A stretch of DNA of 64,000 nt from Legionella quateirensis. GTDB lineage: Bacteria > Pseudomonadota > Gammaproteobacteria > Legionellales > Legionellaceae. A program made the translations under genes and the position numbers. Location of the stretch: assembly GCF_001467955.1 (NCBI RefSeq), contig NZ_LNYR01000049.1, forward strand, positions 114,069 through 178,068, read 5' to 3'. This document shows positions 33,730 to 51,616 of this stretch, piece after piece. Position 1 is the stretch's first letter, and every line of letters starts with the position of its first letter. Below the pieces are notes generated by a model. The model was not told the DNA's origin, searched no databases, and saw nothing but the letters and a program-made list of their open reading frames with translations.

Positions 33730-34437
33730 TTATTCTGATACTGCTCGAATACTTCCAAGTTTGGCATGTGCTTCCACTGTTTGATTGACCAAAGTATTTC
33801 CATATCCTATCCATGCGCCTTTTTTAATCGTAGTACCGGGGCCTATTTTTGTTGCCATACCAATAAATACATCATCCTCAATGATAACAGGAGACATAAA
33901 AACAAGGCTGCCCACATCGGAATGACAGCTGATGGTTACGTCGCTACCAATAGTGACATTTTTTCCTATTGTAATCAGAGGAGTATCTACCAAATCGATA
34001 TCAAAAGAATTCATAATTTGAAAAGAAACCTTGGCTCCCAAAGCTCGCCAATACAAATATTTCAATACATTGAACGATTGAATGATAAAAATAAACCCAG
34101 TGATTTTTGCAGCTCGGGACAAGGCAAAATGACAAAACCAGGCTATCATCATTCGATTCAATTCCCGTTTATAACGCCCAGGTTTTAATCGGGGTAAACT
34201 GATTCTGATTAAGAAGAGAATCGCAATTAAGGTAAAAAAAAGGATAAATGGTGCCAACGGCAAAACCAACCAGGTTTTTGAGTAGCCGTGATATAGAAAC
34301 AAACCAGTCACACTCATGGCACAAACTGCCGGCATCAAGCTTAAGAATACAGAGATTAAATCAATAAAAAGAAGAGACGAAACGGTTAACTGATTCTTTT
34401 TTTTGGAGGCTTTTTTATTTTTGGCTTTCTCTGTCAT
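33730..34437 (-). CDS. Membrane-anchored left-handed beta-helix (hexapeptide) acyltransferase-like protein
   Basis: 235 residues. The basic N-terminus KNKKASKKKN is followed by two hydrophobic helices within the first 75 residues. The C-terminal half consists of hexapeptide repeats, for example ITIGKNVTIGSDVTISCHSD and VIIEDDVFIGMATKIGPGTT, with further I-G-x-x-x-x repeats. These fold as a left-handed beta helix, as in many O- or N-acetyltransferases and in the C-terminal domain of PglD- or Pls/peptide-synthetase-associated proteins. No substrate can be inferred. Convergent with the ArgP-like gene. Confidence 0.75.
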   Translation of the reverse strand: MTEKAKNKKASKKKNQLTVSSLLFIDLISVFLSLMPAVCAMSVTGLFLYHGYSKTWLVLPLAPFILFFTLIAILFLIRISLPRLKPGRYKRELNRMMIAWFCHFALSRAAKITGFIFIIQSFNVLKYLYWRALGAKVSFQIMNSFDIDLVDTPLITIGKNVTIGSDVTISCHSDVGSLVFMSPVIIEDDVFIGMATKIGPGTTIKKGAWIGYGNTLVNQTVEAHAKLGSIRAVSE

Positions 34438-36992: not shown

Positions 36993-37045
36993 AGTCATCT
37001 CTATTAGTCAGTAACAACTGTTAGATTTTAAAAAACCAACATGTT

Positions 37046-37079
37046 CCCCTCTCCACCTGGCGCAGCGTGAGGGAGAGGG
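37046..37079. repeat. CCCTCTCC-type dispersed hairpin
   Basis: CCCTCTCC and GGGAGAGGG are complementary arms around a GCGCAGCGTGA core. A relative lies at 56183-56215. It is between the orphan gene and the convergent GH3 gene and could serve as a transcription end. Confidence 0.65.
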
Positions 37080-37170
37080 ATCAAGGATGTACTATTCATG
37101 CAGTTACTCTTTAAATCGCAACGAAAGCTTACTGAGTTACCGCGCGCTCAAGAATCAATGTACCAACTTA

Positions 37171-38703
37171 TCATCTCTCCGCGATAACCTGCTGTGAAAT
37201 TAATTTTGGTTTTGTCTGAGCATGAACACCTGCCAATAATTCGTCTTCAGGTAGTTGAAGCAAGGTCATAGGAATCACTTCGCCGGTTTCCATACTATGA
37301 GCATAGGTTGGACTGATTTGCATTAAATGATGATGCAAATCTGCCAGGATTGCTTCGGGTAGTTCCATCTTATTATCCGTTACCAAAACGATTCGATTCC
37401 CAATACTGTTTCGCGCAAAAAACCAGTGTGGTGCCATTTTAAAATCAGCTTCCTGCAACATGGACTGCAACTCCTGCCCGGTTACAGCGCAACTTTCCAA
37501 TTTCAGTAATTGGGTTTTATAACAAAACTCCAATCTGGGTGCCTTATTCAAATAACCAGTACATCGTACTACGTCTTTTAGCCGATAACGCACAAACCCC
37601 ATAGCTGTAGTCAAAAACACTTCATAATTCACCCCTACTTCCAACTCCCAGCTCTGCAAAAGATTATTTTTATCCAGCTCCTTACCTTCTTCAATAAACT
37701 CGACAATATGAGCCCCCGGATGCAATACTCCTCCCAACACCCCCTCTTCCAGTGGCACAGTCAGCCAACCTTCCGTAGCGGAATAGGTTCCATCAACCAG
37801 ACTTATCTTATCCCCCATGCGTTTTTGCAATTGCTGAGCAGGGAATTCACAAAGTCCCGAAGTCCAGCACCCTGCAAGTTCCAAAGATGGCCATAACTCA
37901 TTAAAACTCAGAGGAGATTTATTGACTGCCAATTTCTTTAAATAATCTTGGCGAACCTGGGTTACTTGAACTGGAGGCAATCCAGCTGGAACTGCTTTCT
38001 CGCCCACCAAATAGGGAAGATAAAGATGAAAACCTTCAACACATCGATCGTAAAAGGTATCAATAACCATGGGAGTTACCGCAAACATGGCACTTAAATC
38101 ACAAGCCAGCGCATACAAGGGAGCCCATTGTTCATAGACTTCATCATTAGCAAAGACTTCGTCCGGCATCGCATAAAATCGCTTTATAAACGAAGGAAGA
38201 TGACGGTAGTTAAAATTACTTATCCATCCAGAAGGAGTACCTGCAGGAGTTGTTTTGTTCGTATTTACAGCAACCAGATACACCAATTTTTCCTTGAACA
38301 AATTCTTGAATCGCTGCGTCAGGCTGTATATATAAGGTGGCATGGTTCGTTGAAACTGTTTTTGAAATGAAGCGGTAATCGGAAAAAATTTCCTGGCGCC
38401 AGCTGTGCCTGAAGTCTCTGACCAAAAAATTAATTCTTCACCATTGAAAGGCTGAATATGCATGTTCTGAGCGGCTAATAGACCTTCCTCATAATCCTCA
38501 TAATGAGTTAGTGCAAACTCATCTAGATCCAATGATTTCTTATGTTCAAGAACAGGAGGCCAATAAGTCGATTGGCGCAGTAAAGGAATAATTTCTTTTG
38601 TCCATAATCGGTCTCTTGCCTGCTCAGGGAACTTGGTATCTTTAAGAAACGCTTTGTACTTATTTTTAGTCATTGCAGCAATTAACATCTTTTTCCAATT
38701 CAT
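37171..38703 (-). CDS. GH3-family acyl-acid amido synthetase-like protein
   Basis: 510 residues of the GH3 (JAR1-type) fold. Adenylation motif FWSETSGTAGARKFFP near residue 90. SLVDGTYSATEGWLTVP and VNYEVFLTTAMGFVRYRLKD match the conserved Tyr-containing and YRxGD-like blocks. In plants GH3 enzymes adenylate an acid and join it to an amino acid; bacterial members are widespread but mostly untested. ATG 38703 has GGAG 8 bases upstream. A longer frame to 38769 would overlap the preceding gene. It is the last gene of the minus-strand arm of the acyl cluster, 5 bases after the dehydrogenase. Its presence suggests an amide or ester-forming last step. Confidence 0.85.
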   Translation of the reverse strand: MNWKKMLIAAMTKNKYKAFLKDTKFPEQARDRLWTKEIIPLLRQSTYWPPVLEHKKSLDLDEFALTHYEDYEEGLLAAQNMHIQPFNGEELIFWSETSGTAGARKFFPITASFQKQFQRTMPPYIYSLTQRFKNLFKEKLVYLVAVNTNKTTPAGTPSGWISNFNYRHLPSFIKRFYAMPDEVFANDEVYEQWAPLYALACDLSAMFAVTPMVIDTFYDRCVEGFHLYLPYLVGEKAVPAGLPPVQVTQVRQDYLKKLAVNKSPLSFNELWPSLELAGCWTSGLCEFPAQQLQKRMGDKISLVDGTYSATEGWLTVPLEEGVLGGVLHPGAHIVEFIEEGKELDKNNLLQSWELEVGVNYEVFLTTAMGFVRYRLKDVVRCTGYLNKAPRLEFCYKTQLLKLESCAVTGQELQSMLQEADFKMAPHWFFARNSIGNRIVLVTDNKMELPEAILADLHHHLMQISPTYAHSMETGEVIPMTLLQLPEDELLAGVHAQTKPKLISQQVIAER

Positions 38704-38708
38704 CCACA

Positions 38709-40400
38709 CTACTCCGCTATCTTCGTTGATATTACAGCAAATAATTTTTTTTGCTGATAATAAGCACATAAATGATCAGCCATCTTTTCTTGTAAACCAC
38801 GTTCTATCAGGCGAGATGAGTCCAGCTTATTCATGATGAATTGTATTGCTAAATTGAGCCAGTTTATATCTTTTAATTCATCACTCAGTACATTGTGATT
38901 GTGATACCAAAACTGCAGGCAACAACAGGCAGCATATATCCAGCAATAATGTTCTGCCAAACGAAAGGCGGGCAGGCTTCGTGCGTCAAATACCTTTTGT
39001 TCTCTAAGTTGGCTAATCTGTTGATCCAAGTTCTTAATTTCATCTCGAACAGCAGCAATAAGATGATTGATGGGCTCACAATCCAGTTGCATTAATCCGG
39101 CAAACACATCGTCTTCTTCATGGGTAAAAAGACTCAGATTATCCCCTTCAAATGGAGGACAGGGGGATTCCAGATGAAACATCCGTTTCAGTTGTTCCGA
39201 GTCAACCAGCGCATTGGTACCACGCATCCGTACCTGAGGTAATAAATTACCTGCAATCAGGGATAAATTGACTTGAGTACTTCCATCAAATAAGCCCACA
39301 ACCTGAATATCACGCCTGATTTTTTGAAATATAGCCCACGGAGTCGTTCTTAAAAAACCTCTGGCTCCCAAAATAATCCCGCATTGTTCGACGAGATCCT
39401 CGCACAGTTGAGGAATCAAAAACTTGATAATCGCCGACCAAAAACTTAACTTTTCAGGAAACACAGTGCATGCTCTAAGGACACAAAGAGAAGTACAATC
39501 TGCGATTAACAATTGGGTAAACAATTCCCCTAATCGTTGTTTCACCGCAGGGATTTCATAAGCGGGCTTACCGTATAATTGTCTGTCCAAACTAAAAGAA
39601 AGAGCCAACCGCAATGCAGTATCGGCTCCGCCTACCGATAAACCGGCACATAAAGTTCTCGAAATTTGAAAAGTTTTATAGGTAAGTTCCAAACCGCTTT
39701 GTGTGGTACCTATTAATGAGTCTTTAGGCAATCGGAGCTTATCCAGGACAAAACCACTGATATCCAAGCCTCTGACTCCATGCGTAGGGAGTTTCGGTAT
39801 TGGTGTAAACCCTGTGTCAATTAAGGATTTATCAATAAAAAACAGACCAAAACCTAAAAGCCCGCCCTTTTCATGAGTTCGACACAAGACTGAAACCAAA
39901 TCTCCCTCAGTAGCAAAATTAATGCACCATTTTTGGCCTGAAAGCTCCCAACCGTCTTGCACTGGTTGAGCAATAACTTCATTTGAGGTCAAATCTGATC
40001 CATGAGTTTCTTCAGTTAAAGCCAGAGCTGCAATGCTCCCCTTTTTAATGAGCCCTGCCAAAGATTTTTTCTGATCTGCGGTACCGGAAATCCAAAAAGG
40101 CAAAGCACCAAAAAAAGATAATCCCAGAGCAATAGCGACAGTAATATCTCTTCTGGCAATTAATTTGCTCAGCAAATAAACCTCATCCAGACCATTCAAT
40201 GCTCCGTCACAATTCTGCGGGATAATGTAATTCATAAAGCCCCAGTCTCGAATGTAATTTAAATGCTTCCAGTCAAGCGTTTCCTGCTCATCATGTAGTA
40301 CTATCTGTTTAAAATTAATGGGGGTTTGGGGTTGTTCAGGATTCCCCAGATAGACTTCGAAGGACTCTAATAATTGAACCAAATCATCAAGGGAAGACAT
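38709..40400 (-). CDS. Acyl-CoA dehydrogenase family protein
   Basis: 563 residues. The first 390 or so are an acyl-CoA dehydrogenase: ALTEETHGSDLTSNEV and LSGQKWCINFATEGDLVSVL in the flavin-binding beta domain, then the C-terminal helical domain. Where medium-chain enzymes have YEGTSQ with the catalytic Glu, this protein has LFDGSTQ, an Asp-Gly-Ser. Either Asp is the base or the base lies elsewhere. About 170 additional residues with no motif I recognise extend the C-terminus. AAGGAA lies upstream of the ATG. Nine bases after the carboxyltransferase gene, so the same operon. Probably desaturates an acyl chain bound to CoA or ACP. Confidence 0.85.
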   Translation of the reverse strand: MSSLDDLVQLLESFEVYLGNPEQPQTPINFKQIVLHDEQETLDWKHLNYIRDWGFMNYIIPQNCDGALNGLDEVYLLSKLIARRDITVAIALGLSFFGALPFWISGTADQKKSLAGLIKKGSIAALALTEETHGSDLTSNEVIAQPVQDGWELSGQKWCINFATEGDLVSVLCRTHEKGGLLGFGLFFIDKSLIDTGFTPIPKLPTHGVRGLDISGFVLDKLRLPKDSLIGTTQSGLELTYKTFQISRTLCAGLSVGGADTALRLALSFSLDRQLYGKPAYEIPAVKQRLGELFTQLLIADCTSLCVLRACTVFPEKLSFWSAIIKFLIPQLCEDLVEQCGIILGARGFLRTTPWAIFQKIRRDIQVVGLFDGSTQVNLSLIAGNLLPQVRMRGTNALVDSEQLKRMFHLESPCPPFEGDNLSLFTHEEDDVFAGLMQLDCEPINHLIAAVRDEIKNLDQQISQLREQKVFDARSLPAFRLAEHYCWIYAACCCLQFWYHNHNVLSDELKDINWLNLAIQFIMNKLDSSRLIERGLQEKMADHLCAYYQQKKLFAVISTKIAE

Positions 40401-40409
40401 AAATGTTCC

Positions 40410-41825
40410 TTATACAATTGAATGACGAGCATCAGGCATTTGGTGCATTTTTCTATATAAAAACTCCAGATGTTGTGCCAATCGCGCACGTATCTGCATG
40501 GGTTTAATGATTTCATCAATTATTCCCAAAGAGTAGGCTTCGGCGAGTGATTCATCGATTGATGATGCATGTTCTGATGTCGGATCCATTTTGTGATCCT
40601 GAGCCTGACCATCCGTAGTGTGCACTTTTTTGGTTGTTTCTTTACCCATTACTCCTAAACTTGCGGTTTCCAATGCCAGGACCAAATCTCCATTCTGAGA
40701 TTTGGTTTGCATCATCAAAAAGGCTGCAGCGCCATAGCATTTCCGAACAACAACACTAACTCTCGGCACTCTGGTCTGCATGGCCACGCACAGCCTGGCT
40801 CCATGTTGGAGCAATCCCTTATGCTCTTCCCTTTTACCCGGCATAAAGCCCGGCACATCGATTAGGGTCAATATAGGAATCGAATAGGCATCGCAGATTC
40901 GGATGAATTTAGACGTTTTTTGTGCAGCGTCAGAATCAATCGCTCCACTAAAACGTATGCTTTGATTGGCAACCAAGCCAACGGCATAGCCATTAATATG
41001 AACAAAAGCACATATCATTGCCTGACCATAAGATCGTTTGTATTGAATGACTTCAGAATTATCAACAACAGCGTGAATCAAATCCAGAATATTAAACGGT
41101 AAGCGTGGATTGGCTGGGATCACAGGCATTGGATGTACCGGTTCATGAGCTGAATGCAGAGGTGGGAGTTCATTGGCATGTGAAGGTAAAAAATTCAACA
41201 GCAATTTCACATGATTGATTTGAGCAGCCGTGCTGTCATCCACAAAATCCGCTATGCCTGTAGTCGTAGCATGCATTCCAGTACCGCCTAATTCACTCAT
41301 CGATACTTTTTCACCTATGGCCTGCTGGACTACCATTGGACTTGTAACCATCAGATAACTGCGATGTTTATTAAAAAACAATAAATCCATTAATACCGCA
41401 GAGTAAGCGGGAGCTCCAAGAGTAGGCGCAGATATGACGGCAAGCTGAGGAACCAAACCGGATAATGAGATGTTTCTACTGATGATTTGGGTGTATTCGT
41501 CGCCACTTAACAAATCCAGAGAGATACCTGGAGAGGCCAGAAAAGCAATTACAGGAATCTTTAAGTCTCTTGCCTTGTCCATCAATCGAACAATTTTTAT
41601 CGCGCCTTCACGAGTCACATAACCTCGATTCTCTCCAGTATTGTGCGCGTATACAGCAACGGGCCGATGATTTACCTTTGCCAATCCGGTAATCACTTCA
41701 GCACCCACTTTCAAATGAGTCTGATGTTCAGGAGTATATTCTGATCCCAGTGGGAGAAAACTATGGGCATCAATCAAACTTTCTATCCATTTCATGGAAG
41801 CTTTCTCAGAAGACTGTAAAGACAT
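40410..41825 (-). CDS. Acyl-CoA carboxylase carboxyltransferase (beta) subunit
   Basis: 471 residues, two crotonase-like halves. The N-half has RPVAVYAHNTGENRGYVTRE and the C-half LTLIDVPGFMPGKREEHKG, VRKCYGAAAFLMM and LALETASLGVMGKE, typical of propionyl-/methylcrotonyl-/acyl-CoA carboxylase beta subunits. At 471 residues it is slightly short, with a reduced N-terminus. Such enzymes make malonyl- or branched malonyl-CoA extender units, or carboxylate enoyl-CoAs. No biotin carboxylase or biotin carrier gene is in the window, so these must be supplied from elsewhere. AGGGGG precedes the ATG. First gene of the minus-strand arm. Confidence 0.88.
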   Translation of the reverse strand: MSLQSSEKASMKWIESLIDAHSFLPLGSEYTPEHQTHLKVGAEVITGLAKVNHRPVAVYAHNTGENRGYVTREGAIKIVRLMDKARDLKIPVIAFLASPGISLDLLSGDEYTQIISRNISLSGLVPQLAVISAPTLGAPAYSAVLMDLLFFNKHRSYLMVTSPMVVQQAIGEKVSMSELGGTGMHATTTGIADFVDDSTAAQINHVKLLLNFLPSHANELPPLHSAHEPVHPMPVIPANPRLPFNILDLIHAVVDNSEVIQYKRSYGQAMICAFVHINGYAVGLVANQSIRFSGAIDSDAAQKTSKFIRICDAYSIPILTLIDVPGFMPGKREEHKGLLQHGARLCVAMQTRVPRVSVVVRKCYGAAAFLMMQTKSQNGDLVLALETASLGVMGKETTKKVHTTDGQAQDHKMDPTSEHASSIDESLAEAYSLGIIDEIIKPMQIRARLAQHLEFLYRKMHQMPDARHSIV

Positions 41826-42003
41826 CTAACCCCCTAAATTGATCAAATATGTATCAACCAGTAAAATATAGACTAATCTTAATTAAATTATGACATACTA
41901 ATTTTGAATACAGTGAAAAAAATAAACTTGATCTAGTCCTACAAAAAAGTGTAGTTTCAATAACATCACATCACCCAAATACGTTCAGAGGTGAACACAA
42001 GTC
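41826..42003. promoter_or_regulatory. Divergent promoter region of the acyl cluster
   Basis: 178 bases between the carboxyltransferase and KASIII starts must carry both promoters. It contains TTGATCAAATATGTATCAA near 41839-41857 (TTGAT-N9-ATCAA) and CTACAAAAAAGTGTAG at 41939-41954, two inverted repeats that could be operators. AGAGGTG precedes the KASIII ATG. I see no clear -35/-10 pair. Confidence 0.5.
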
Positions 42004-43053
42004 ATGGATATTTTAAAACCTAATATTCGATTTAATATTTCCGCTGCTTCAAGAATCTTACCTGAATCTGACCCAATTACCAATTTGGAAATTCTGCAGA
42101 ATTTTCCGAGGACGGCAAAACAATCTCCCGCCTTTCTTGAAAAATTCGCTGAAAAAATAGGTGAAGAATTTGGTTTTTATACCCGCTACTGGTGTCACAA
42201 ACCCTGGGAATCCCTGGATGCGTCACGAAATCTGACCGCTGAATCGCTGGCAGCGGGGGCAGTAAAAAAGTTAATTGAGACTTATAAACCCGAACATATT
42301 GCCTCATTCCTTTTAGGTTCTACGACCAATAAACGGTTTACTGGATCTCAAGCAGCAGCTGTATTAGGTGAGCTGGGTTTAAACGCACCCGCTTATGATT
42401 TGAAAACTGGATGTTCTACTTCATTATCCACCTTGCATTTAGCTTATGCGTTAATGGCATTAGGCTATAAAAATGTTTTAGTGAGTTGTGCTGAGACCTT
42501 ATCAAAAGTAATCGATCCCGAAAATGAAAAAACCTGGATCGGTCTGGCTGATGGCGCCGCAGCATTATTTCTTGAACAATCAGACCAGGGTTCATTTACA
42601 GTAGAACAAAGTTTTTTTTCAACAGATGGGGCCTATGTTGAGGCATTCACCACTCAAGGAGTCTTCCCACCAACTCAGGAGCAATTAGATAATATAGGAT
42701 ATCATTTGCTCGGCGATGAAGCGTTGTTAAAGGAGCTGGCTTATAAACGATATACCGAAATGATTACCCATATTCTCCCTACAGAACAGGAACGAAATGA
42801 AATTACCTGGGTAATTCCACATCAGGTTAATCGTAAATTAATCGATCTGCTTCTGGATGAAAATCAATTCAAAAATACAACAGTACTATGGGATTCCGAT
42901 ACCATTGGAAACATCGGAGGAGCTTCCATAGCCTATACCCTTGCACGGGCTGTAGAAGAAAATAAATTTGATAGATCAGGAAAAATTCTATTAATGAGTG
43001 TCGGTGGCGGATTGTCCTATGCTGCACAAGTACTGCAATACGTCAAAACGTAA
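42004..43053 (+). CDS. 3-oxoacyl-ACP synthase III (FabH-like), first copy
   Basis: 349 residues of the thiolase fold. The triad is readable: Cys in YDLKTGCSTSLSTLH, His in WVIPHQVNRKLIDLL, and Asn in IGNIGGASIAYTLA. This is a decarboxylating KASIII or a related acyltransferase. It differs from housekeeping FabH in its first 60 residues and its KTGCST nucleophile context (FabH usually has AACAGF), so a specialised condensation or acyl transfer is likely. First gene of the plus-strand operon. It is followed by a 33-aa frame with a strong RBS and the fatty acyl-AMP ligase. Confidence 0.88.
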   Translation: MDILKPNIRFNISAASRILPESDPITNLEILQNFPRTAKQSPAFLEKFAEKIGEEFGFYTRYWCHKPWESLDASRNLTAESLAAGAVKKLIETYKPEHIASFLLGSTTNKRFTGSQAAAVLGELGLNAPAYDLKTGCSTSLSTLHLAYALMALGYKNVLVSCAETLSKVIDPENEKTWIGLADGAAALFLEQSDQGSFTVEQSFFSTDGAYVEAFTTQGVFPPTQEQLDNIGYHLLGDEALLKELAYKRYTEMITHILPTEQERNEITWVIPHQVNRKLIDLLLDENQFKNTTVLWDSDTIGNIGGASIAYTLARAVEENKFDRSGKILLMSVGGGLSYAAQVLQYVKT

Positions 43054-43086
43054 CAAACCAAAACCCTGTTTAACAAGGATCGTTAA

Positions 43087-43188
43087 ATGAAAAAATATAA
43101 CACGCTACCCAACATTGCCATATGGCAATTACACCAAATCAGAGAACTGAAGCACGGCGAATCTATAAACTTTAGATGTACCATTTGA
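43087..43188 (+). CDS. Predicted 33-aa peptide inside the acyl cluster
   Basis: Between the first KASIII gene and the acyl-AMP ligase lie ATG 43087 and stop 43188, preceded by AAGGA at the ideal 7-base spacing. The product is MKKYNTLPNIAIWQLHQIRE followed by LKHGESINFRCTI. No recognisable domain. It may be a real small protein of the pathway or a leader that tunes translation of the ligase, whose ATG lies 14 bases after the stop. The RBS is the main evidence. Confidence 0.4.
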   Translation: MKKYNTLPNIAIWQLHQIRELKHGESINFRCTI

Positions 43189-43201
43189 ACACTAAGGACT
43201 T

Positions 43202-44950
43202 ATGATGAGTATAGAATTGAAACAATGTCAGTCTTTGGTTGAGGTTTTGAGATTTAGAGCCTTAAGCAGTCCTCAGAAAAGCATCTGTACCTTTCTCAAT
43301 AAAGGGATAGAGCACACGATGAATTATGCTGAATTGGATGGGCACGCAAGAGCCATAGCCGCCGCATTACAAGCGCGAGGAGTAAACAAGGGTGACCGGG
43401 TGCTGTTATTATTCTCTCCGGGACTCCCTTTGATCCATGCCTTTTTTGGATGCCTTTATGCCGGTTGCATAGCGGTTCCAATCTACCCTCCGGCACAGGA
43501 AAAACTACTCGAAAAAACGCAACGTATTATTAAAAATTCCAAACCGCGTTTCGTATTACTGACAGCGGCACACTTGAAACAATTCTCTGATGCAGGATCG
43601 GATTCAAACGGACATTTTGCTCAAATTCCCTGTATTACTGTCGACTCCATCAATTCAGATAAAGGCGCTGATTGGGATCCTCCGGTACTAAATAAAAACG
43701 ATATTGCCTTTCTTCAGTATACTTCGGGTTCAACCATGCATCCCAAGGGCGTGATGGTCAGTCACGGTAATTTAATCCATAATCTTGAACTGATGTGCAC
43801 TCACTTTCAAGTCAATGACGAGAGTGTCTTGTTCAGCTGGCTGCCACCGCATCATGATATGGGCTTAATCGGCTATATTTTAACGCCCATATATAGAATG
43901 CTCCCGATCATTATGATGTCGCCATTTTCATTTTTAGAAAGTCCTCTTTCATGGTTAACCAATATTACCAAATATAAAGTGACCATTAGCGGAAGTCCTA
44001 ATTTTGCTTACGATTACTGCGTTAAACGAATAAAGGAAGAAAAAAAACAAGGATTGGATTTAAGCTCGTGGAAAATCGCTTCAAATGCCGCAGAACCAGT
44101 CAGTAAAGTAACCATGGAACATTTTTATCAAGCCTTTAAAGACTATGGTTTTCGTATGGAATCCTTTTATCCCTGCTACGGCTTGGCAGAAGCAACCTTA
44201 GTGGTTACTTGTGGAACACCTGGACAACATTTCAAGACACTTACTCTGGATAAAGAACACTACCGCGATCATCGTGTCCATTTTGCACCAGAGAATAGCC
44301 CTGGCAGCCATGTTCTGGTTGGTTGTGGCGCAATGGCTCAAACCGTTAAAATTGTTGATCCGGATACTTTAGTACTCTGTGACCGTGATCAAGTAGGAGA
44401 AATCTGGGTTCATGGCGACAGCGTCACCCTCGGTTACTGGGATCAAAAAGAAGAAACGGAGCATGCCTTTAACGGTAAAATCAAAGGCGACGAAACAGGC
44501 CTGTCCTATTTAAGGACTGGTGATCTGGGCTTCATCCACGATGATGATCTCTATGTTACTGGAAGGATCAAAGATTTAATTATTCTTTATGGTAAAAACC
44601 ATTATCCTCAAGATATAGAGTACAGTCTGCTTCATTCGCCCTTACGTTCACTATTGAGGAAATGTGCGGCATTTGTGATTCAAAATGAACAGGAATATGA
44701 ACTCACCGTAGTATGTGAGCTCAGAGAGGAACACATGGATGCTGCTGCCCAGGATGAATTATTTAACGCCATATTCAAACTCACCTATCAAATACATCAA
44801 CTGGAAATCAATAGAATCGTGTTCATTTCACCTGATGCAATACCTCATACTACCAGCGGAAAAATACGTAGAAACTTCTGTCGTAAGTATTTATTGGATA
44901 ATTCTTTGCCAGTCATAGCTTCCTGGCAATTAAATAAGAATAAGGATTGA
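43202..44950 (+). CDS. Fatty acyl-AMP ligase (FAAL)
   Basis: 582 residues of the adenylate-forming superfamily. The P-loop QYTSGSTMHPKGVMVSHGN lies at 172-190, YPCYGLAEATLVVTC is A5-like, and YLRTGDLGFIHDDDL is A7-like. TTSGKIRRN near the end provides the C-terminal Lys. Length and the SWLPPHHDMGLIG, PLSWLTNI and ISGSPNFAYDYCVKR segments are those of FAALs rather than acyl-CoA ligases. FAALs activate a fatty acid as acyl-AMP and pass it to an ACP, here most plausibly the ACP at 46324. Two ATG codons (43202, 43205) start it. Ends 4 bases before the next ligase. Confidence 0.93.
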   Translation: MMSIELKQCQSLVEVLRFRALSSPQKSICTFLNKGIEHTMNYAELDGHARAIAAALQARGVNKGDRVLLLFSPGLPLIHAFFGCLYAGCIAVPIYPPAQEKLLEKTQRIIKNSKPRFVLLTAAHLKQFSDAGSDSNGHFAQIPCITVDSINSDKGADWDPPVLNKNDIAFLQYTSGSTMHPKGVMVSHGNLIHNLELMCTHFQVNDESVLFSWLPPHHDMGLIGYILTPIYRMLPIIMMSPFSFLESPLSWLTNITKYKVTISGSPNFAYDYCVKRIKEEKKQGLDLSSWKIASNAAEPVSKVTMEHFYQAFKDYGFRMESFYPCYGLAEATLVVTCGTPGQHFKTLTLDKEHYRDHRVHFAPENSPGSHVLVGCGAMAQTVKIVDPDTLVLCDRDQVGEIWVHGDSVTLGYWDQKEETEHAFNGKIKGDETGLSYLRTGDLGFIHDDDLYVTGRIKDLIILYGKNHYPQDIEYSLLHSPLRSLLRKCAAFVIQNEQEYELTVVCELREEHMDAAAQDELFNAIFKLTYQIHQLEINRIVFISPDAIPHTTSGKIRRNFCRKYLLDNSLPVIASWQLNKNKD

Positions 44951-44954
44951 GCAC

Positions 44955-46337
44955 ATGCATCTTATATCCAATAAATTTCTTGAAAAAACAGCGCTTGTAG
45001 AAGGAGAGTTACACCTTTCTTATGCACAATTGCACGAGGAAGTAACGCGTCTGGCCAATCAAGTACACAAGTTACCAGAAGGCATACTCCTGCTTACAGC
45101 GACCCACAGCATCCAGTTTGTGATTCAACTCCTGGCTGCTTTGCAGTGTGATAAACCAGTGGCCCTTTGTCCCACTACTTTATCAGAACAGGAATTGCAA
45201 AACAGACTGTCCATTCTGGACACAGCGATGACCGTGGACAGCAATGGAAATTTATTGGAACTTTATGAAAAGAAAACTACCAGACATCATCCACTGCTCG
45301 CGTTGATCCTGTTCACGTCCGGCACAACCGGACAAGTAAAGGCAGTCCAGTTATCCGCTAAAAATATTGAATCCAATTGTCTGGCAGTGATTAAGGCCCT
45401 GAATTTTCCAAACGTTAAGAGTCAATTGCTCTTTTTACCACTGTCCTATTCCTATGGATTATTAGGGCAATTACTGCCCGGTTTAATGTGCGGCCATACA
45501 ACCAAACTGGTCTCACAATTTACTGATCTCAAGAACATTCTTGAACATGGACCCATTCCTCAAATGTGGAGTGGAGTACCGTCTCATTGGGTAGCCATCA
45601 GTAGGATGGCAGCTGCTTATCCAGAACATGCCAAACAAATTACAGCTATAGTTTCTGCGGGCGCCCCCCTGCCTACTACTTTACGAACAGAATTAAATGC
45701 ACTGTTTACCCAGGCCATAATTTATAACAATTACGGTTTGACTGAGGCATCACCACGTGTACTGACCTATTCGAGTCGGGATCCTCTTTTTTATGAACAA
45801 TATGCCGGTTACCCCGTAGGGGACTGGCAAGTAAAACTGTCCGAAGACCAGGAATTATTGCTACAGGGCAGTCAGATGATGTTAGGCTATCTGGGGGATG
45901 ACGAGAATGAAAAGATACACAATGGCTGGCTGCATACAGGCGACATTGCCGAGATACTCCCCAGTGGATTAGTCGCGATCAAAGGGCGGCGAGATAATCA
46001 GGTGAACATTGGCGGCGAAAAAGTAAACCTGGCTGAAATTGAACAAAAACTGTGTCAAATGAAGGAGATTAAAGAAGTCATTGTGGTACCTGTAGAGGAT
46101 GAACTTTATGGCACCCGATTAATCGCCTGTTTCGAGCGAGGCACTCTATCCTCCAGTCTGACTGAGCAGCAGTTAACGGAACACATTCAACAGCATCTAC
46201 TCCCCAGAAAAATACCCATTAGCGCACGTATTCTGGATTCATTACCACGAAATCAACACGGTAAACTGGACAGAAAAACGTTGCAGGCAAACACTATGAA
46301 TTTTGATCAGAAGGAATCACACCATGTTGAGCGATAG
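44955..46337 (+). CDS. Second AMP-dependent acyl/aryl adenylating enzyme
   Basis: 460 residues, shorter than typical CoA ligases (500-550), because the N-terminal subdomain is trimmed. P-loop LILFTSGTTGQVKAVQL near residue 117, A5 NNYGLTEASPRVLTY, A7 WLHTGDIAE, A8 IKGRRDNQVNIGGEKVN and terminal QHGKLDRKT with the catalytic Lys. It resembles stand-alone adenylation or o-succinylbenzoate-CoA-ligase-like enzymes. It probably activates a second, smaller acid for the pathway, though loading onto CoA versus the ACP is open. The last 14 bases overlap the ACP gene. Confidence 0.88.
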   Translation: MHLISNKFLEKTALVEGELHLSYAQLHEEVTRLANQVHKLPEGILLLTATHSIQFVIQLLAALQCDKPVALCPTTLSEQELQNRLSILDTAMTVDSNGNLLELYEKKTTRHHPLLALILFTSGTTGQVKAVQLSAKNIESNCLAVIKALNFPNVKSQLLFLPLSYSYGLLGQLLPGLMCGHTTKLVSQFTDLKNILEHGPIPQMWSGVPSHWVAISRMAAAYPEHAKQITAIVSAGAPLPTTLRTELNALFTQAIIYNNYGLTEASPRVLTYSSRDPLFYEQYAGYPVGDWQVKLSEDQELLLQGSQMMLGYLGDDENEKIHNGWLHTGDIAEILPSGLVAIKGRRDNQVNIGGEKVNLAEIEQKLCQMKEIKEVIVVPVEDELYGTRLIACFERGTLSSSLTEQQLTEHIQQHLLPRKIPISARILDSLPRNQHGKLDRKTLQANTMNFDQKESHHVER

Positions 46338-46557
46338 AATTCAAAACGCTTTTGAACGAATTGGGCTGGGAAATCTTCCTCAAGACAAGCATGCACCACT
46401 CGAACAGGGAGGACTGGATAGTTTAATGTTGGCCTTGTTAATTCTGGAACTTGAGCATGAGTTTCAAATTAAAATCCCCGTCATCCCCTTGATCAAAGAG
46501 CATTATGAAACCAGAGCAAGTATAGAACAACACCTTAAAGATTTGGGGGCAAAATGA
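46324..46557 (+). CDS. Acyl carrier protein, first copy
   Basis: 77 residues. The phosphopantetheine site is GGLDSLMLALLILELEHEF, with the Ser of Asp-Ser-Leu. It has a long hydrophobic helix II and a shortened N-terminus. AAGGAA precedes ATG 46324, inside the end of the ligase gene. Its TGA overlaps the SDR start as ATGA. Dedicated carrier for the FAAL product, inferred from the tight coupling. Confidence 0.9.
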   Translation: MLSDRIQNAFERIGLGNLPQDKHAPLEQGGLDSLMLALLILELEHEFQIKIPVIPLIKEHYETRASIEQHLKDLGAK

Positions 46558-47306
46558 ATCTGTTAATTACCGGAGGTTCCTCAGATATTGCCCAGGCCAT
46601 AGCCAAAAGACGCATTCAAATGGGCGATACGATTATTATCACCTGTTCTAATGAGCAGAGTCTCAATCAGACTTTGGAACACTATAAGCTTCAAAAAATG
46701 AAGGTAACGGGTTTTGTCTATGACTTTGCTCAGCCTGAACGTTGTGAAAAAGAATTAGAACAGATAATACAGCAACCACTGGATGGGTTAGTACTTAATG
46801 CCTTCACCAGAGTACCTCAATTACGCAAATTGCATGCCTTGCCTTACAATGCAGTACGAACGTACATCGATATTAATATTAATGGCAATATATGGCTGAT
46901 TCAAAAGGTCATTGCGTCCATGCTTCTTAATAAATTGGGACGACTGGTTCTTATTTCAAGTCTATCCTCTGTAACAGGAACAAGCCGATATCCGGCTTAT
47001 TGCGCGGCAAAAGCTGCTCTGGAAGGACTGTTTCTTAATTTAGCCGTAGATTACAGCGCAAAAAATATATTATCCAATATATTGCGAGTGGGTTTGATTA
47101 AAACGTCCCGAACAGAACAGTTCTGGAACAACCCGGTCTATCAGGAAAAAGTATCAAAAATTATTCCACAAGGAACCATGGGAGAGCCTGCTCAAGTTGC
47201 TGAAGCGATGGATCCCCTTCTTTCCCTGACGTCATTCATGACCGGTTCAGTAGTGACTGTAAGCGGGGGTTTGCCTTTAATGAGCTCTGAAGGAGTATTA
47301 TCCTGA
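46554..47306 (+). CDS. Short-chain dehydrogenase/reductase, 3-oxoacyl reductase-like
   Basis: 250 residues. NADP-binding ITGGSSDIAQAIAKR, with the NNAG block replaced by LNAFTR. Catalytic Ser in VLISSLSSVTG and Tyr/Lys in YPAYCAAKAALEG are intact. C-terminal SVVTVSGGLPL is FabG-like. Expected to reduce a beta-keto group on an ACP- or CoA-bound chain. Coupled by a 4-base overlap to the ACP gene. NNAG to LNAF is unusual, since that Asn is part of the proton relay. The Asn appears retained but shifted by context. Confidence 0.87.
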   Translation: MNLLITGGSSDIAQAIAKRRIQMGDTIIITCSNEQSLNQTLEHYKLQKMKVTGFVYDFAQPERCEKELEQIIQQPLDGLVLNAFTRVPQLRKLHALPYNAVRTYIDININGNIWLIQKVIASMLLNKLGRLVLISSLSSVTGTSRYPAYCAAKAALEGLFLNLAVDYSAKNILSNILRVGLIKTSRTEQFWNNPVYQEKVSKIIPQGTMGEPAQVAEAMDPLLSLTSFMTGSVVTVSGGLPLMSSEGVLS

Positions 47307-47364
47307 GTTCAGCAGTTGCATCCACGAGTATACACGATTCCATTGATTTTTAAGGATTGGCATA

Positions 47365-48375
47365 ATGAATTTCTTACGCGCAGAAAAACCAATTTATCTT
47401 AAAGGCCCTTATATTGCCCTGCCTGAAAGAGTAATGAGCAATCAGGACGTCCTGAATTGGATGAACAGCAGCCAAAACCCTGCCTTGATTGGATTTTCTA
47501 CCGGGATTAGAAACCGACGCTGGGTCAATGAAGATCAAGCCTGCAGTGATCTCGCGGTGAGCGCTGCTGAACGATTGTTTTCTGAAAAACCTGACGAAAA
47601 AAATAAAATAACCCAGGTTATTCTCGCAACCATCTCTGGAGATTATATAGCGCCTCCTACAAGCCCCCTGATTCAATATAGGTTGGGATTAGACCGTGCA
47701 GGCGCTTTTGATGTGGGCGCCGCCTGCGCGGGTTTTGTAGTAGGTTTGCATACCAGTGCTGCTATTGCACAAGCTGGTTTAGGAGCGATATTACTGATAG
47801 CCAGTGAAATTCGCTCCAAATTTTTAAATAAGAATAATTTTGCCACCAGCGTTCTGTTTGGAGATGGAGCCGCTGCGTGTATTGTTTCCCAGGATACGGC
47901 AGAAGCTGAATTTCGCTTTATTGCCTCCGCATTATTTGCTGATGGTGAAGTCAGTGATACCGTTTCAACACCCGCAGGTGGGTCACGGTTACCGGCGTCT
48001 TTATGTACCAATCCGGATCAATTTTATATCACCATACGTGAAAGTACCGCTCTGTTTGTGAAAGCAGTTCATGGAATGGTTGACAGTGCCAAAATGTTTC
48101 TTAAAGAACTGAATATGAGCCCAACAGATATCGATTGGCTAGTTCCTCATCAAGGAAATAAAAATCTGGTTCTGTCGGTTGCAAAACAATTGGGTTTTCC
48201 TGATGAACGAGTAATCAAGACTGTTGAAGAAACAGGTAATACTTCCGGGGCCAGCGTAGGAATAGCTCTTGAGGATTTAAGAGTGAATTCACCGATTAAA
48301 TCTGGAGATAAGGTACTTCTGGTCGCTGCCGGAGGCGGAGGAATAGCTGCTTGCGCATTACTGGAAGTTGTTTAA
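47365..48375 (+). CDS. 3-oxoacyl-ACP synthase III (FabH-like), second copy
   Basis: 336 residues. Nucleophile in DVGAACAGFVVGLH, His in LVPHQGNKNLVLS, Asn in ETGNTSGASVGIAL, and the final DKVLLVAAGGGG block all fit FabH closely. Closer to canonical FabH than the first copy. With two KASIII enzymes and no KASI/II, chain building seems limited to one or a few condensations. AAGGATTGGCATA precedes the ATG. Last gene of the plus-strand operon. Ends before a palindromic repeat. Confidence 0.92.
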   Translation: MNFLRAEKPIYLKGPYIALPERVMSNQDVLNWMNSSQNPALIGFSTGIRNRRWVNEDQACSDLAVSAAERLFSEKPDEKNKITQVILATISGDYIAPPTSPLIQYRLGLDRAGAFDVGAACAGFVVGLHTSAAIAQAGLGAILLIASEIRSKFLNKNNFATSVLFGDGAAACIVSQDTAEAEFRFIASALFADGEVSDTVSTPAGGSRLPASLCTNPDQFYITIRESTALFVKAVHGMVDSAKMFLKELNMSPTDIDWLVPHQGNKNLVLSVAKQLGFPDERVIKTVEETGNTSGASVGIALEDLRVNSPIKSGDKVLLVAAGGGGIAACALLEVV

Positions 48376-48419
48376 ACCATAGCGCACATTCTATTCTATT
48401 ATGCACTCACAACAGGACA

Positions 48420-48530
48420 TCATCCTGAACACAACGTCATACCGAACATCGTGAGGGATCCCCTGAAAATGGCACGAAACATACCTTCCTGCCACATTCA
48501 GGAGATCCCTCGTTACACTCGGGATGACGT
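48420..48530. repeat. Expanded copy of the 81-bp palindrome
   Basis: CATCCTGAAC and GGATGACG ends are present, but an extra CGTCATACCGAACATCGTGA stretch has been inserted or duplicated near the left arm. It lies between the convergent KASIII and ACP genes; nothing else is seen from 48376 to 48664. Confidence 0.75.
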
Positions 48531-48664
48531 GTTTTTTATACGACAGTGATGACGATAAAACACAAATGCTTGAAAACTATTAGCATCCTCATACAGTTTA
48601 CTTTTGTATTACATAATCACTGAAATAATCTTTGGAGCAGTATTTCATCTACCATAAGATCATT

Positions 48665-48892
48665 TTATTGTTGCGTAAAATCAAATAAATTTTTATACGT
48701 GTGAAATTTCATCGCGTCCTCTTCAGAGACGGGAATCTGGTAATCCTCACTCAATATCGCCAGTAATTCTACAATTTTCAAAGAATCCAGTTGCAAATCT
48801 TCTATTAATGCGGTGTCATCATTAATTTCATCAGCTTTAGCACCCGATAATTTACAAACAATTTCTTTTAATTGTGCGTCAGTTATTTTCAT
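48665..48892 (-). CDS. Acyl carrier protein, second copy
   Basis: 75 residues. LIEDLQLDSLKIVELLAILS holds the pantetheinylated Ser. Acidic overall and closer to housekeeping ACP than the first copy. It lies 9 bases behind the MFS exporter gene on the minus strand, so it belongs to a two-gene unit converging on the acyl operon. A second ACP beside an exporter is unusual. Confidence 0.9.
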   Translation of the reverse strand: MKITDAQLKEIVCKLSGAKADEINDDTALIEDLQLDSLKIVELLAILSEDYQIPVSEEDAMKFHTYKNLFDFTQQ

Positions 48893-48901
48893 AATGTCCT
48901 C

Positions 48902-50116
48902 TTAATTTGAAGGCGTCTCGTCTCGAATCGCTAAATAATACCATGCGGCTAATGAACATAAACCCAATGTCAGTAATATTATAGCCAAAGAAATTTGCCC
49001 GTACCCTTTAAACACAGCGATGCAGCCACTGGTAACGGCTGCGCTCAAATCCTGCATACTGGCATACAATGCCCCCGCTGTTCCAGCCATTTGTGGAAAA
49101 GGATGAAAAGCACCAGCAAAAGCGTTAATGAAGGTAAAGCCTGCTCCCATGCTAAACAGTGCAACAGGAATCATGACACTCAAAACATGCGTTACTCCAG
49201 CTACCGCAAGAAGCAACAGACTGAGTCCGCCGATAATCATAAAGAGCACTCCGGTAAATACCATATAGGAGATACCTTTAAGCATGACTAATTGACTGTT
49301 TATAATACCACTGACACAAATTGCTCCCGCGATGAAAAAAGTTAATTGACCAAATTCGAGCGGGCTTAACCCTAAACTATTCTGAAATAAAAACGGAGCA
49401 ATTGTGAGATAGGCAACCAGGCCAGCACAAGCAAAACAGGCACATAGTGTATAACCTAAAAAAACTTTATTACTGATTAATGTACAATAATTAGTACCCA
49501 TAACCCTTAATTTGGTTGCATCAGGATTAAGATGTTTGTTGGTTTCTGGAAGAATAATGAGTGCCATGCTCCACACTACGATGCCAAACACAATTAAAAA
49601 TAAAAAATTAGCCCGCCACCCGGCATGCTCTTGTATGTATCCACCCAATGTGGGAGAAGCAGCCATTATAAAAATGCTTACTATCCCGACATAAGAACCA
49701 ATTTTCGCCAGCAATCGGTCAGTAAACAGATCGCGAACCAATGATCGTCCAACTGAATTACAGCACCCAATACCAAAACCCTGTAAAAAACGACCCCAAA
49801 TTAATAGCGTCGTCGAAGGTGCCATAAAACAAAAAATACTGCCAATAATACTCAAACCGACTCCGAACATCAGTGGCGGCTTGCGTCCGATCCGATCAGA
49901 TAAAGGCCCATAGAACACATGAGAAATACTCAAACCCAACATAAAAAAAGTCAGCGTTAATTGAATGGTTGCTTCATTACTCTTAAAAAACTGAGTCATG
50001 GCTGGTAAGGAAGGGACATACTGATCCGTAGTCATTTGCATCAATGCCATCATCAATAAGATGATAAAAATCAAGACTGGATTTATGTTTGGAGAATTCT
50101 GTTCCTGGTGCATCAA
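48902..50116 (-). CDS. Bcr/CflA-type MFS exporter
   Basis: 404 residues, 12 hydrophobic segments. The motif GPLSDRIGRKPPLMFGVGLS in loop 2-3 and FMLGLSISHVFYGPLSDR identify the drug:H+ antiporter family 1 branch (Bcr/CflA). Expected to export the product of the neighbouring cluster or provide resistance to it. It has two ATG codons at the start. Upstream on the other strand is the sterol-desaturase gene, with repeats in between. Confidence 0.88.
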   Translation of the reverse strand: MMHQEQNSPNINPVLIFIILLMMALMQMTTDQYVPSLPAMTQFFKSNEATIQLTLTFFMLGLSISHVFYGPLSDRIGRKPPLMFGVGLSIIGSIFCFMAPSTTLLIWGRFLQGFGIGCCNSVGRSLVRDLFTDRLLAKIGSYVGIVSIFIMAASPTLGGYIQEHAGWRANFLFLIVFGIVVWSMALIILPETNKHLNPDATKLRVMGTNYCTLISNKVFLGYTLCACFACAGLVAYLTIAPFLFQNSLGLSPLEFGQLTFFIAGAICVSGIINSQLVMLKGISYMVFTGVLFMIIGGLSLLLLAVAGVTHVLSVMIPVALFSMGAGFTFINAFAGAFHPFPQMAGTAGALYASMQDLSAAVTSGCIAVFKGYGQISLAIILLTLGLCSLAAWYYLAIRDETPSN

Positions 50117-50320
50117 TTATCCTTTAAATGGTATTCCATTATTAATACTAGAAAAAGCAGTTCAATCTACTGTGAGCCATTATTGCAGGTACTTTAAACA
50201 AAAAAAATGGATAAATATCAATATCATCATTTACATTCACTAAAAAATTAGATAGAAATTAAAAACAGCCGTATTAGAATCTGTTGACATTTCAATGTGT
50301 TAATTCTCCTTAAAGGTCCA

Positions 50321-50345
50321 CGTACCGCGGCTTGTCCGCGGTACG
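50321..50345. repeat. CGTACCGCGG palindrome
   Basis: CGTACCGCGG, CTTGT, CCGCGGTACG: a perfect 10-bp stem. The same family is seen at 59826-60044 and, in altered form, at 35922-36032. It lies in the 288-base gap before the desaturase, which holds no other feature. Confidence 0.85.
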
Positions 50346-50404
50346 TAGGGGTTATAAAACAATTGTTAACAGACCCTAATTTCATGGATACACAAGGGGT
50401 ATTT

Positions 50405-51616
50405 ATGGATATCAATTTCATGGTTTATGCAACACCTATGTTCCTGGTTCTAATAGGGCTGGAATGTTTGATTTCCTTTTATAAAAAAAAATCCCTGTAT
50501 CACTTAAATGATTCGGTGAATAATTTCTGTAGCGGGATTCTTGAAGAAACAGGTGCTCTGCCCGTCAGAGGCTTAATCATTTACAGTTATTATTACTTAT
50601 ACGAACATTATGCGTTTTTTAATATTAACACACACTCCGTCATTTCATGGTTTTTACTATGGATAGGCGTGGATTTCTTCTATTACTGGTTTCACAGAGT
50701 CAGCCATAGAAATAACTTTTTTTGGATAGGCCATTCCGTTCATCACCAAAGTGAGCATTATAATTTATCAGTTGCCTTAAGACAGGGTTTTTTTCAGACT
50801 TTGACTTCCTGGGTATTTTACTTGCCATTAGCTTTGATTGGTTTTCCAACCTGGATGTTTGCCGTGGTTGCCAGTATCAATACGATATACCAATTCTGGA
50901 TTCACACCCAAACGATCAATAAAATGGGCTGGTTTGAAAAGATATTTAATTCCCCCTCTCATCACCGTGTTCATCATGGTAGAAACCCTCAATACATCGA
51001 TAAAAATTATGCGGGCAGTTTAATTATCTGGGACAAATTATTTGGGACTTTTGAGCCTGAAGGTGCTCCGGTCGAATATGGGGTCACAGAACCTCTTGAC
51101 TCATGGAATCCCTTTTACGCCAATATAAAAGTAATAAAAGATCTTTTTTATTACGGTAAAAATCTTAATAATAAATTCACACTTCTGCGTGCCTTTTTTA
51201 TGCCCCCGGAATGGATCATAAAACAACTGGAAAAGGAGCATTCTCCTACAGTCAAAAGACCTCATATGCCTCTGAATACCAAGTCGCCTATGCTTTATAT
51301 GCTATTAAATACAACAGTCGCAGTGATTATATTTACTTATTTATCGTTAACTTATGATCCTTACTCGATACACTCCTGGATCATTGGCGCAATAGTATTA
51401 TTGACCCTTTTAATTCTGGGAATTGTCGCAAACGGCAAACGTACATTCCAATGGCTGGAAATTATACGCTCTGTATTAATATGTATAAGTCTCAGTTTAA
51501 CAACCAATAATCTGATTCTGCCACTGAGTATTGGATTACTGTTTTTTGTTATCAACCACCTGCTCTGCCAGTATCCATTTTTTAAAGCTTTTACCTATAG
51601 ACAAAATACAATCTGA
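50405..51616 (+). CDS. Sterol desaturase/fatty acid hydroxylase superfamily protein
   Basis: 403 residues. Di-iron His motifs, numbered from ATG 50405: H97-x3-H101 (FHRVSHR), H110-x2-H113-H114 (GHSVHHQ) and H186-H187-x2-H190-H191 (SHHRVHH). These are the three boxes of the family. Several membrane helices surround them, plus a C-terminal membrane region of about 110 residues. It uses O2 and an electron donor to oxidise a lipid C-H bond. AAGGGG precedes 50405. The frame extends to 50297 through a repeat, so that extension is artefactual. It ends where a 128-bp tandem repeat begins. Confidence 0.87.
   Translation: MDINFMVYATPMFLVLIGLECLISFYKKKSLYHLNDSVNNFCSGILEETGALPVRGLIIYSYYYLYEHYAFFNINTHSVISWFLLWIGVDFFYYWFHRVSHRNNFFWIGHSVHHQSEHYNLSVALRQGFFQTLTSWVFYLPLALIGFPTWMFAVVASINTIYQFWIHTQTINKMGWFEKIFNSPSHHRVHHGRNPQYIDKNYAGSLIIWDKLFGTFEPEGAPVEYGVTEPLDSWNPFYANIKVIKDLFYYGKNLNNKFTLLRAFFMPPEWIIKQLEKEHSPTVKRPHMPLNTKSPMLYMLLNTTVAVIIFTYLSLTYDPYSIHSWIIGAIVLLTLLILGIVANGKRTFQWLEIIRSVLICISLSLTTNNLILPLSIGLLFFVINHLLCQYPFFKAFTYRQNTI

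What the first reader, a model, noticed from the sequence alone, without database searches (positions are those of the whole stretch)
37171..50116. Possible undescribed acyl-amide or beta-keto/hydroxy-acyl biosynthetic cluster
Carboxyltransferase, acyl-CoA dehydrogenase and GH3 on one strand, then KASIII, FAAL, a second adenylating enzyme, ACP, SDR and KASIII on the other, with an ACP and a Bcr/CflA exporter beyond. Each enzyme is recognisable from motifs. Together they suggest FAAL loading of a fatty acid onto a dedicated ACP, one or two KASIII condensations, reduction, possible GH3 joining to an amino acid or amine, and export. There are no multidomain PKS/NRPS modules, so common cluster rules could miss it. 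The product is unknown and the ordering of steps is inference.
Basis: partly seen in the sequence, partly recalled or inferred. Interest (0 to 1): 0.8.

Follow-up and report, generated by a model that had tools for sequence, protein, structure and literature searches.

The report
Legionella surfactant biosynthesis gene cluster
A conserved block of separate lipid-making enzymes in a Legionella species that matches the already described genes for the surfactant Legionella pneumophila uses to slide over surfaces, so the cluster is known although several of its chemical steps are not.

Summary
In detail: GH3, dehydrogenase-like and carboxyltransferase genes on one strand, KASIII-FAAL-AMP ligase-ACP-SDR-KASIII on the other, then an ACP and a Bcr/CflA exporter. 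It is no chance grouping: GH3 is in 31 of 45 same-genus genomes and FAAL and KASIII-1 track it; nine core genes keep order and strand in 28 of 28 fetched loci.

It is not undescribed. It is very probably the orthologue of the L. pneumophila surfactant locus: a held paper ascribes the polyketide legionellol to lpg2223-41; lpg2228 is a KASIII, lpg2233 an ACP; bbcB and bbcF (a KASIII) mutants lack surfactant. The primary papers are not held.

Best reading: FAAL loads a fatty acid onto an ACP; discrete KASIII, SDR and dehydrogenase-like enzymes extend and modify it; ligases finish it; the lipid is exported. New here: conservation over most of the genus sampled, near-restriction to it in the samples searched, and GH3 and membrane hexapeptide proteins without assigned roles. 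The acyl-amide idea is untested.

The parts
33730..34437 (-). LbetaH: membrane protein with bacterial hexapeptide repeats, weak partial match to the terminal domain of Pls/PosA-type NRPS (TIGR02353)
   Evidence: found near GH3 in 23 of 28 fetched loci; in L043 it lies directly after GH3
37171..38703 (-). GH3-type adenylating (acyl acid amido synthetase-like) enzyme, 510 aa
   Evidence: Pfam GH3_M 70.4 bits and GH3 52.3 bits, both above cut-off; profile finds plant GH3 structures; SETSGT, SATEG and RY.LKD motifs conserved in 29 rows with single exceptions
38709..40400 (-). acyl-CoA dehydrogenase-like flavoenzyme, 563 aa with a C-terminal extension; Asp at the catalytic-base position
   Evidence: Pfam; solved homologues cover about residues 34-406; LFDGS(S/T) in 27 of 27 rows; that the usual base is Glu is recalled
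40410..41825 (-). acyl-CoA carboxylase carboxyltransferase (propionyl-CoA carboxylase beta-like), 471 aa
   Evidence: Pfam 295.5 bits; nearest solved: propionyl-CoA carboxylase beta 3n6r_B, 1e-77
41826..42003 (.). 178-bp intergenic region between the two divergent gene sets, possible shared promoter region
   Evidence: inference: the consensus scan found no more promoter-like sites than shuffles (24 against mean 32.0 over 36900-50400)
42004..43053 (+). KAS1: divergent KASIII, candidate orthologue of lpg2228
   Evidence: Pfam; Cys137/His273/Asn303 in 29 of 29 rows; lpg2228 = KASIII from PMC4273665, PMC5928044; 22% identity to KAS2
43202..44950 (+). FAAL: fatty acyl-AMP ligase
   Evidence: 3kxw/3lnv match 2.6e-279, residues 5-580 against 6-581; motifs conserved in 29 rows
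44955..46337 (+). second AMP-forming ligase (MenE/acyl-CoA synthetase-like), substrate unknown
   Evidence: Pfam AMP-binding and AMP-binding_C; best NCBIfam menE 198.8 bits, under its 330 cut-off
46324..46557 (+). ACP1: dedicated acyl carrier protein
   Evidence: PP-binding 28.8 bits, cut-off 20.8 (on the longer reading from 46303); LDSL serine in 29 of 29 rows
46554..47306 (+). SDR, FabG-like ketoacyl reductase
   Evidence: best NCBIfam TIGR01830, below its cut-off; Ser/Tyr/Lys conserved in 29 of 29 rows
47365..48375 (+). KAS2: FabH/BioZ-like KASIII
   Evidence: (PRK09352 249.4 bits, cut-off 249); Cys/His/Asn in 27 of 27 rows
48665..48892 (-). ACP2: acyl carrier protein; candidate lpg2233 orthologue (inference)
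   Evidence: PP-binding 44.1 bits; DSL serine in 26 of 26 rows; lpg2233 called a putative ACP in PMC13200437
48902..50116 (-). Bcr/CflA-family MFS efflux transporter
   Evidence: TIGR00710 235.9 bits, above cut-off 200.9; found in 24 of 28 fetched loci
50297..51616 (+). fatty acid hydroxylase-family membrane protein, possible accessory
   Evidence: PF04116 105.9 bits; found in 4 of 28 fetched loci, with limited flank, so not core

Best explanation
This is the Legionella surfactant (bbc / legionellol) biosynthesis locus in another Legionella species. Shown here: a syntenic, intact gene set under purifying selection, conserved over most of the genus sampled. Shown by others in L. pneumophila: mutants in the surfactant genes bbcB and bbcF (bbcF being a KASIII) lack surfactant, the bbcF mutant does not spread, and the polyketide legionellol is ascribed to lpg2223-41. 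Inferred route: FAAL adenylates a free fatty acid and loads it on ACP1; the carboxyltransferase supplies a malonyl-type extender; KAS2 condenses the two; the SDR reduces the 3-keto group; the dehydrogenase-like enzyme introduces or modifies unsaturation; KAS1 makes a second condensation or joins chains; the second ligase and GH3 activate a carboxylate for a finishing amide or ester step, possibly with the membrane hexapeptide protein; the lipid leaves by the MFS pump and the envelope and acts as a sliding surfactant.
For: Legionellol cluster = lpg2223-41, and legionellol A described as a polyketide in sliding motility (PMC5126622 passages). bbcF mutant lacks a KASIII for surfactant production and shows no spreading (PMC12952804 passages). 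bbcB mutants are surfactant-null (PMC3503961 passages; PMC6598767 passages). lpg2228 = KASIII; lpg2233 = putative ACP. FAAL closest to 3kxw/3lnv; the G033 orthologue, nearly identical to 3kxw by the printed alignment, sits in the same cluster. G000, G033 and G016 each hold four KASIIIs, two of them here. Genus-wide synteny and co-occurrence. dN/dS 0.03-0.22 for the nine core genes against L034.
Against: The primary papers (Stewart 2011, Johnston 2016) are not held, so which bbc letter is which gene, and the legionellol structure, were not seen; no genome carrying lpg numbers was on hand. Two further KASIIIs lie elsewhere in the genome, one in another lipid-like cluster, so bbcF is not tied to this cluster by sequence. 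A 2023 paper says L. pneumophila surfactants 'remain to be identified' (PMC10719263 passage). Surfactant secretion is TolC-dependent by the title of Stewart 2011 (seen in reference lists), which does not speak for the MFS pump, and that pump was not found in 4 of 28 fetched loci. The dehydrogenase lacks the usual Glu base. No surfactant phenotype is known to me for the window species. The order of steps is inference.
Confidence: 0.88

Rival explanations
1. A distinct lipid pathway (N-acyl amide or acyloxyacyl aminolipid) unrelated to the surfactant, with GH3 as the amide-forming enzyme.
For: GH3-family enzyme with adenylation motifs; the solved relatives in plants are named amido synthetases or ligases.
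Against: GH3 sits in the same conserved block as genes in the range ascribed to legionellol. Its match to the bacterial GH3 enzyme OlsH is only 24.1 bits against a cut-off of 620. The described product is called a polyketide.
Confidence: 0.08
2. Same ancestral surfactant locus, but in the window species it makes a different congener or has a signalling or antimicrobial rather than a surfactant role.
For: The second ligase and the dehydrogenase are the most divergent core genes (mostly 56-67% and 57-64% identity outside the four nearest relatives), which could reflect changed substrates.
Against: Most catalytic residues checked are invariant; the nine-gene content is the same in 28 of 28 fetched loci.
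Confidence: 0.2
3. Chance grouping of ordinary fatty-acid metabolism genes.
For: None found.
Against: Co-occurrence and synteny. Flanking genes are found less often in the same loci: LysR 1, hyp36k 2, ABC 2, FAH 4 and Sel1 6 of 28, although limited flank was fetched.
Confidence: 0.01

Closest known systems
Legionella pneumophila surfactant locus (bbc genes; legionellol cluster lpg2223-41)
   Same: Gene set with KASIII, FAAL, ACP and discrete lipid enzymes; same genus; lpg2228 KASIII and lpg2233 ACP fit the order here to within one gene
   Different: Different species; the gene-by-gene letter mapping and the product in this species were not seen
Plant GH3 acyl acid amido synthetases (JAR1, GH3.5, GH3.12) and bacterial OlsH
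   Same: Family and adenylation motifs
   Different: Remote: 30-51 bits to plant structures, 24 bits to OlsH; acceptor unknown
BioZ (3-oxopimeloyl-ACP synthase; the name BioZ is recalled) and FabH KASIII enzymes
   Same: KAS2 matches both kinds of structure at about 1e-42 to 1e-44 and keeps Cys-His-Asn
   Different: Sits in a surfactant cluster, not among biotin or primary fatty acid genes
Lipstatin (lst) type clusters with two FabH-like enzymes, an acyl ligase and a reductase (recalled, not searched)
   Same: Paired KASIIIs, ligase and reductase as discrete enzymes
   Different: Lipstatin has an NRPS and no GH3, carboxyltransferase or FAAL-ACP pair (recalled)

Membership tests
Legionella surfactant/legionellol (bbc, lpg2223-41) locus | Orthologous gene set in the lpg2223-41 position | tested here: met
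   Indirect: anchors lpg2228 KASIII and lpg2233 ACP from papers; FAAL to 3kxw; same order in G033, fitting the numbers to within one gene. No lpg-numbered genome was on hand; 3kxw = lpg2229 and LpnE = lpg2222 are recalled.
Legionella surfactant/legionellol (bbc, lpg2223-41) locus | Contains the KASIII (bbcF) and bbcB needed for surfactant | tested here: inconclusive
   Two KASIIIs here, but the genome has four; letter mapping not seen because the primary paper is not held
Legionella surfactant/legionellol (bbc, lpg2223-41) locus | Strain makes a sliding surfactant / legionellol | not testable with these tools
   Phenotype and metabolite data needed; bench step referred
GH3 family | GH3 domains above Pfam cut-off and adenylation motifs | tested here: met
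GH3 family | Full GH3 fold including the C-terminal domain | not tested
   Structure prediction was busy at all four attempts; sequence match ends near residue 425
OlsH lyso-ornithine lipid synthetase | NCBIfam NF052613 cut-off | tested here: not met
   24.1 bits against 620
FAAL | Full-length match to solved FAALs with adenylation motifs | tested here: met
   no NCBIfam FAAL-type model listed reaches its curated cut-off
KASIII | Cys-His-Asn triad | tested here: met
   KAS1 29 of 29 rows, KAS2 27 of 27 rows
Acyl-CoA dehydrogenase | Catalytic Glu base | tested here: not met
   Asp at the LFDGS position in 27 of 27 rows; the usual Glu and its place are recalled; the Pfam middle and C-terminal domains are met, so it is called dehydrogenase-like

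The most novel reading that the evidence does not exclude
A GH3-type adenylating enzyme and a membrane hexapeptide protein finish a wholly non-modular, FAAL-primed, two-KASIII polyketide pathway by joining the chain to an amine or alcohol, giving a class of bacterial surfactant made by an assembly logic not described in anything I could read, and conserved across most of the genus sampled.
Probability: 0.25. Interest if true: 0.5.

Novelty: already known. Interest (0 to 1): 0.25.

Why it matters
It ties a widely conserved gene block to the Legionella surfactant. A held survey shows the legionellol cluster in its supplementary file of unique clusters (PMC5126622, file legend); here the block is in 31 of 45 same-genus genomes. 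That makes sliding and inter-species effects comparable across species, and points to GH3, the Asp-type dehydrogenase and the hexapeptide protein as steps still without a role.

Tried and rejected
Chance grouping: rejected by co-occurrence and synteny. GH3 as the OlsH aminolipid enzyme: rejected, 24.1 bits against 620. A homologous cluster outside the genus: the GH3 profile at E 1e-20 hit 13 of 112 family genomes, 12 in genus g1 and broken pieces in G122 of another genus, and 3 of 369 class genomes, two in g1 and one remote match, G457 at 93.5 bits, whose 20-kb neighbourhood has no FAAL, KASIII or carboxyltransferase match; the KAS1 profile at E 1e-60 hit 30 of 143 order genomes, all g1. These are samples with strict thresholds, not exhaustive. 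The named-genome scan with KAS1, which needs short conserved peptides, gave 21 loci from 60 matched stretches, all Legionella or Fluoribacter; 20 of 21 carry all nine core genes, and L094, a 3.8-kb contig, carries KAS1, FAAL and the ligase. Promoter and terminator scan: no excess over shuffles. ORFs between KAS2 and ACP2 in L043, L051 and L061: those of L043 were scanned and gave a TPR protein and a protein with no family, no biosynthetic match. Paper searches with no useful result; 'legionellol' is held in one paper only. A FAAL review names Legionella once and has none of the terms GH3, FabH or KASIII. Passages of PMC7867332 and PMC11631085 had nothing on this cluster.

Full report
What is there. 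The window lies at G000:C49:114069-178068 of a 4.2-Mb genome. Its closest cluster relative is Legionella bononiensis (92-98% identity for the nine core proteins), then L. moravica, so it is a Legionella species. Pfam and NCBIfam support the families: GH3, acyl-CoA dehydrogenase-like and carboxyltransferase on the minus strand; KASIII, FAAL, AMP ligase, ACP, SDR, KASIII on the plus strand; ACP and Bcr/CflA MFS on the minus strand. GH3 most likely starts at 38703, which removes the apparent overlap with the dehydrogenase gene.

It is a unit. Among 45 same-genus genomes GH3 is in 31, KASIII-1 in 30 and FAAL in 31 after setting aside one 47%-identity match inside a 2039-aa frame. The same 14 genomes lack GH3 and FAAL; the one genome with GH3 and FAAL but no KASIII-1 is G012, an 81%-complete draft in 320 contigs. 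I fetched 28 of the 30 other GH3-positive genomes. All nine core genes occur in the same order and strand in 28 of 28, with partial matches in a few: L040 carboxyltransferase and ligase, L048 and L052 dehydrogenase, L054 and L060 KAS2. ACP2 was found in 25, MFS in 24 and the hexapeptide membrane protein in 23 of 28; L034, L046 and L049 show no ACP2 within the fetched stretch. dN/dS against L034 is 0.03-0.22 for the nine core genes. KASIII triads, both ACP serines, the ligase motifs and the GH3 motifs are conserved in 26-29 rows, with minor exceptions listed; only full-length rows were aligned there.

It is known. [quoted passage not shown] lpg2228 is a KASIII, raised in post-replicative forms in amoebae (PMC4273665 passage) and listed in a LetS regulon table (PMC5928044 passage). 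lpg2233 is one of three putative ACPs (PMC13200437 passage). PMC12952804 reports that a bbcF mutant, lacking a KASIII for surfactant production, does not spread; PMC3503961 and PMC6598767 report that bbcB mutants lack surfactant, and the latter, citing Stewart 2009, that L. micdadei makes none. The FAAL's best solved match is 3kxw/3lnv; the orthologue in G033 aligns to 3kxw over its full length, nearly identical by the printed alignment, and lies in the same cluster. Gene order in G033 fits, to within one gene, a count from a chitinase-like ORF (identified by eye; Lpg2217 is called a putative chitinase in PMC6617341) to lpg2228. That 3kxw is the L. pneumophila protein lpg2229, that LpnE is lpg2222, and that Stewart 2011 named two adjacent operons bbcABCDEF and bbcGHIJK are recalled, not seen.

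Limits of that identification. The two primary papers are not held. Each of three genomes searched has four KASIIIs, two of them here; of the other two in the window genome, one sits beside matches to SDR and ACP like a primary fab operon and one in another lipid-like cluster. So bbcF is not proved by sequence to be KAS1 or KAS2. A 2023 paper states that surfactants remain to be identified in L. pneumophila (PMC10719263 passage), against PMC5126622. Surfactant secretion is TolC-dependent by the title of Stewart 2011 (reference lists); a part for the MFS pump here is inference.

How it likely works. Shown: genes, motifs, synteny. Inferred: FAAL primes ACP1 with a fatty acid; the carboxyltransferase (nearest solved relatives are propionyl-CoA carboxylase beta subunits) supplies an extender together with a biotin carboxylase encoded elsewhere, which I did not search for; KAS2 (FabH/BioZ-like) condenses; SDR reduces; the dehydrogenase-like enzyme, with Asp in place of the usual Glu (usual residue recalled), modifies the chain; KAS1 (22% identical to KAS2) adds or joins a second unit; the second ligase and GH3 activate a carboxylate at the end. 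A link between GH3 and the hexapeptide protein is suggested by their closeness in other species and by the protein's partial match to the terminal domain of Pls/PosA NRPSs (49.3 bits against a cut-off of 423), which is weak.

Beyond the genus. Profile searches found no second lineage with the cluster in the samples taken: 112 family genomes with GH3 (broken GH3 pieces in one genome of another genus), 369 class genomes with GH3 (one remote GH3 without cluster partners), 143 order genomes with KAS1, and a named-genome scan with KAS1 that returned 21 loci, all Legionella or Fluoribacter.

Verdict. Real and conserved, and very probably the locus already described in L. pneumophila for the surfactant/legionellol.

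Noticed in passing
window 33730-34437: Membrane hexapeptide-repeat protein weakly resembling part of the Pls/PosA NRPS terminal domain; near GH3 in 23 of 28 fetched relatives, so perhaps part of the locus.
   Followed up: partly
L112 (G000:C12:371000-384000): Another KASIII beside ORFs that look by eye like an NAD-dependent epimerase, a metallo-beta-lactamase-fold protein and an adenylating ligase: a second lipid-type cluster.
   Followed up: no
L043:14265-16685, L051:14295-16700, L061:3440-5851: A TPR protein and an unassigned 317-333-aa protein lie between KAS2 and ACP2 in the three relatives looked at, and not in the window.
   Followed up: partly
   Followed up: no
L048, between 4453 and 6391: Dehydrogenase match is partial and only 46% identical although the other core genes of that locus are 62-80% identical.
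   Followed up: no
L108:8353-10958 (G457): In a distant genome of the same class a GH3 gene directly follows a fatty acid hydroxylase-like gene, with no KASIII or FAAL match in the 20 kb fetched.
   Followed up: partly
L109 (G122:C250): Broken GH3 pieces with a TAG inside, 44-58% identical, in another genus of the family.
   Followed up: partly
L041:7820-8683: An ORF that looks by eye like an outer membrane protein sits between the carboxyltransferase and KAS1 in G033.
   Followed up: no
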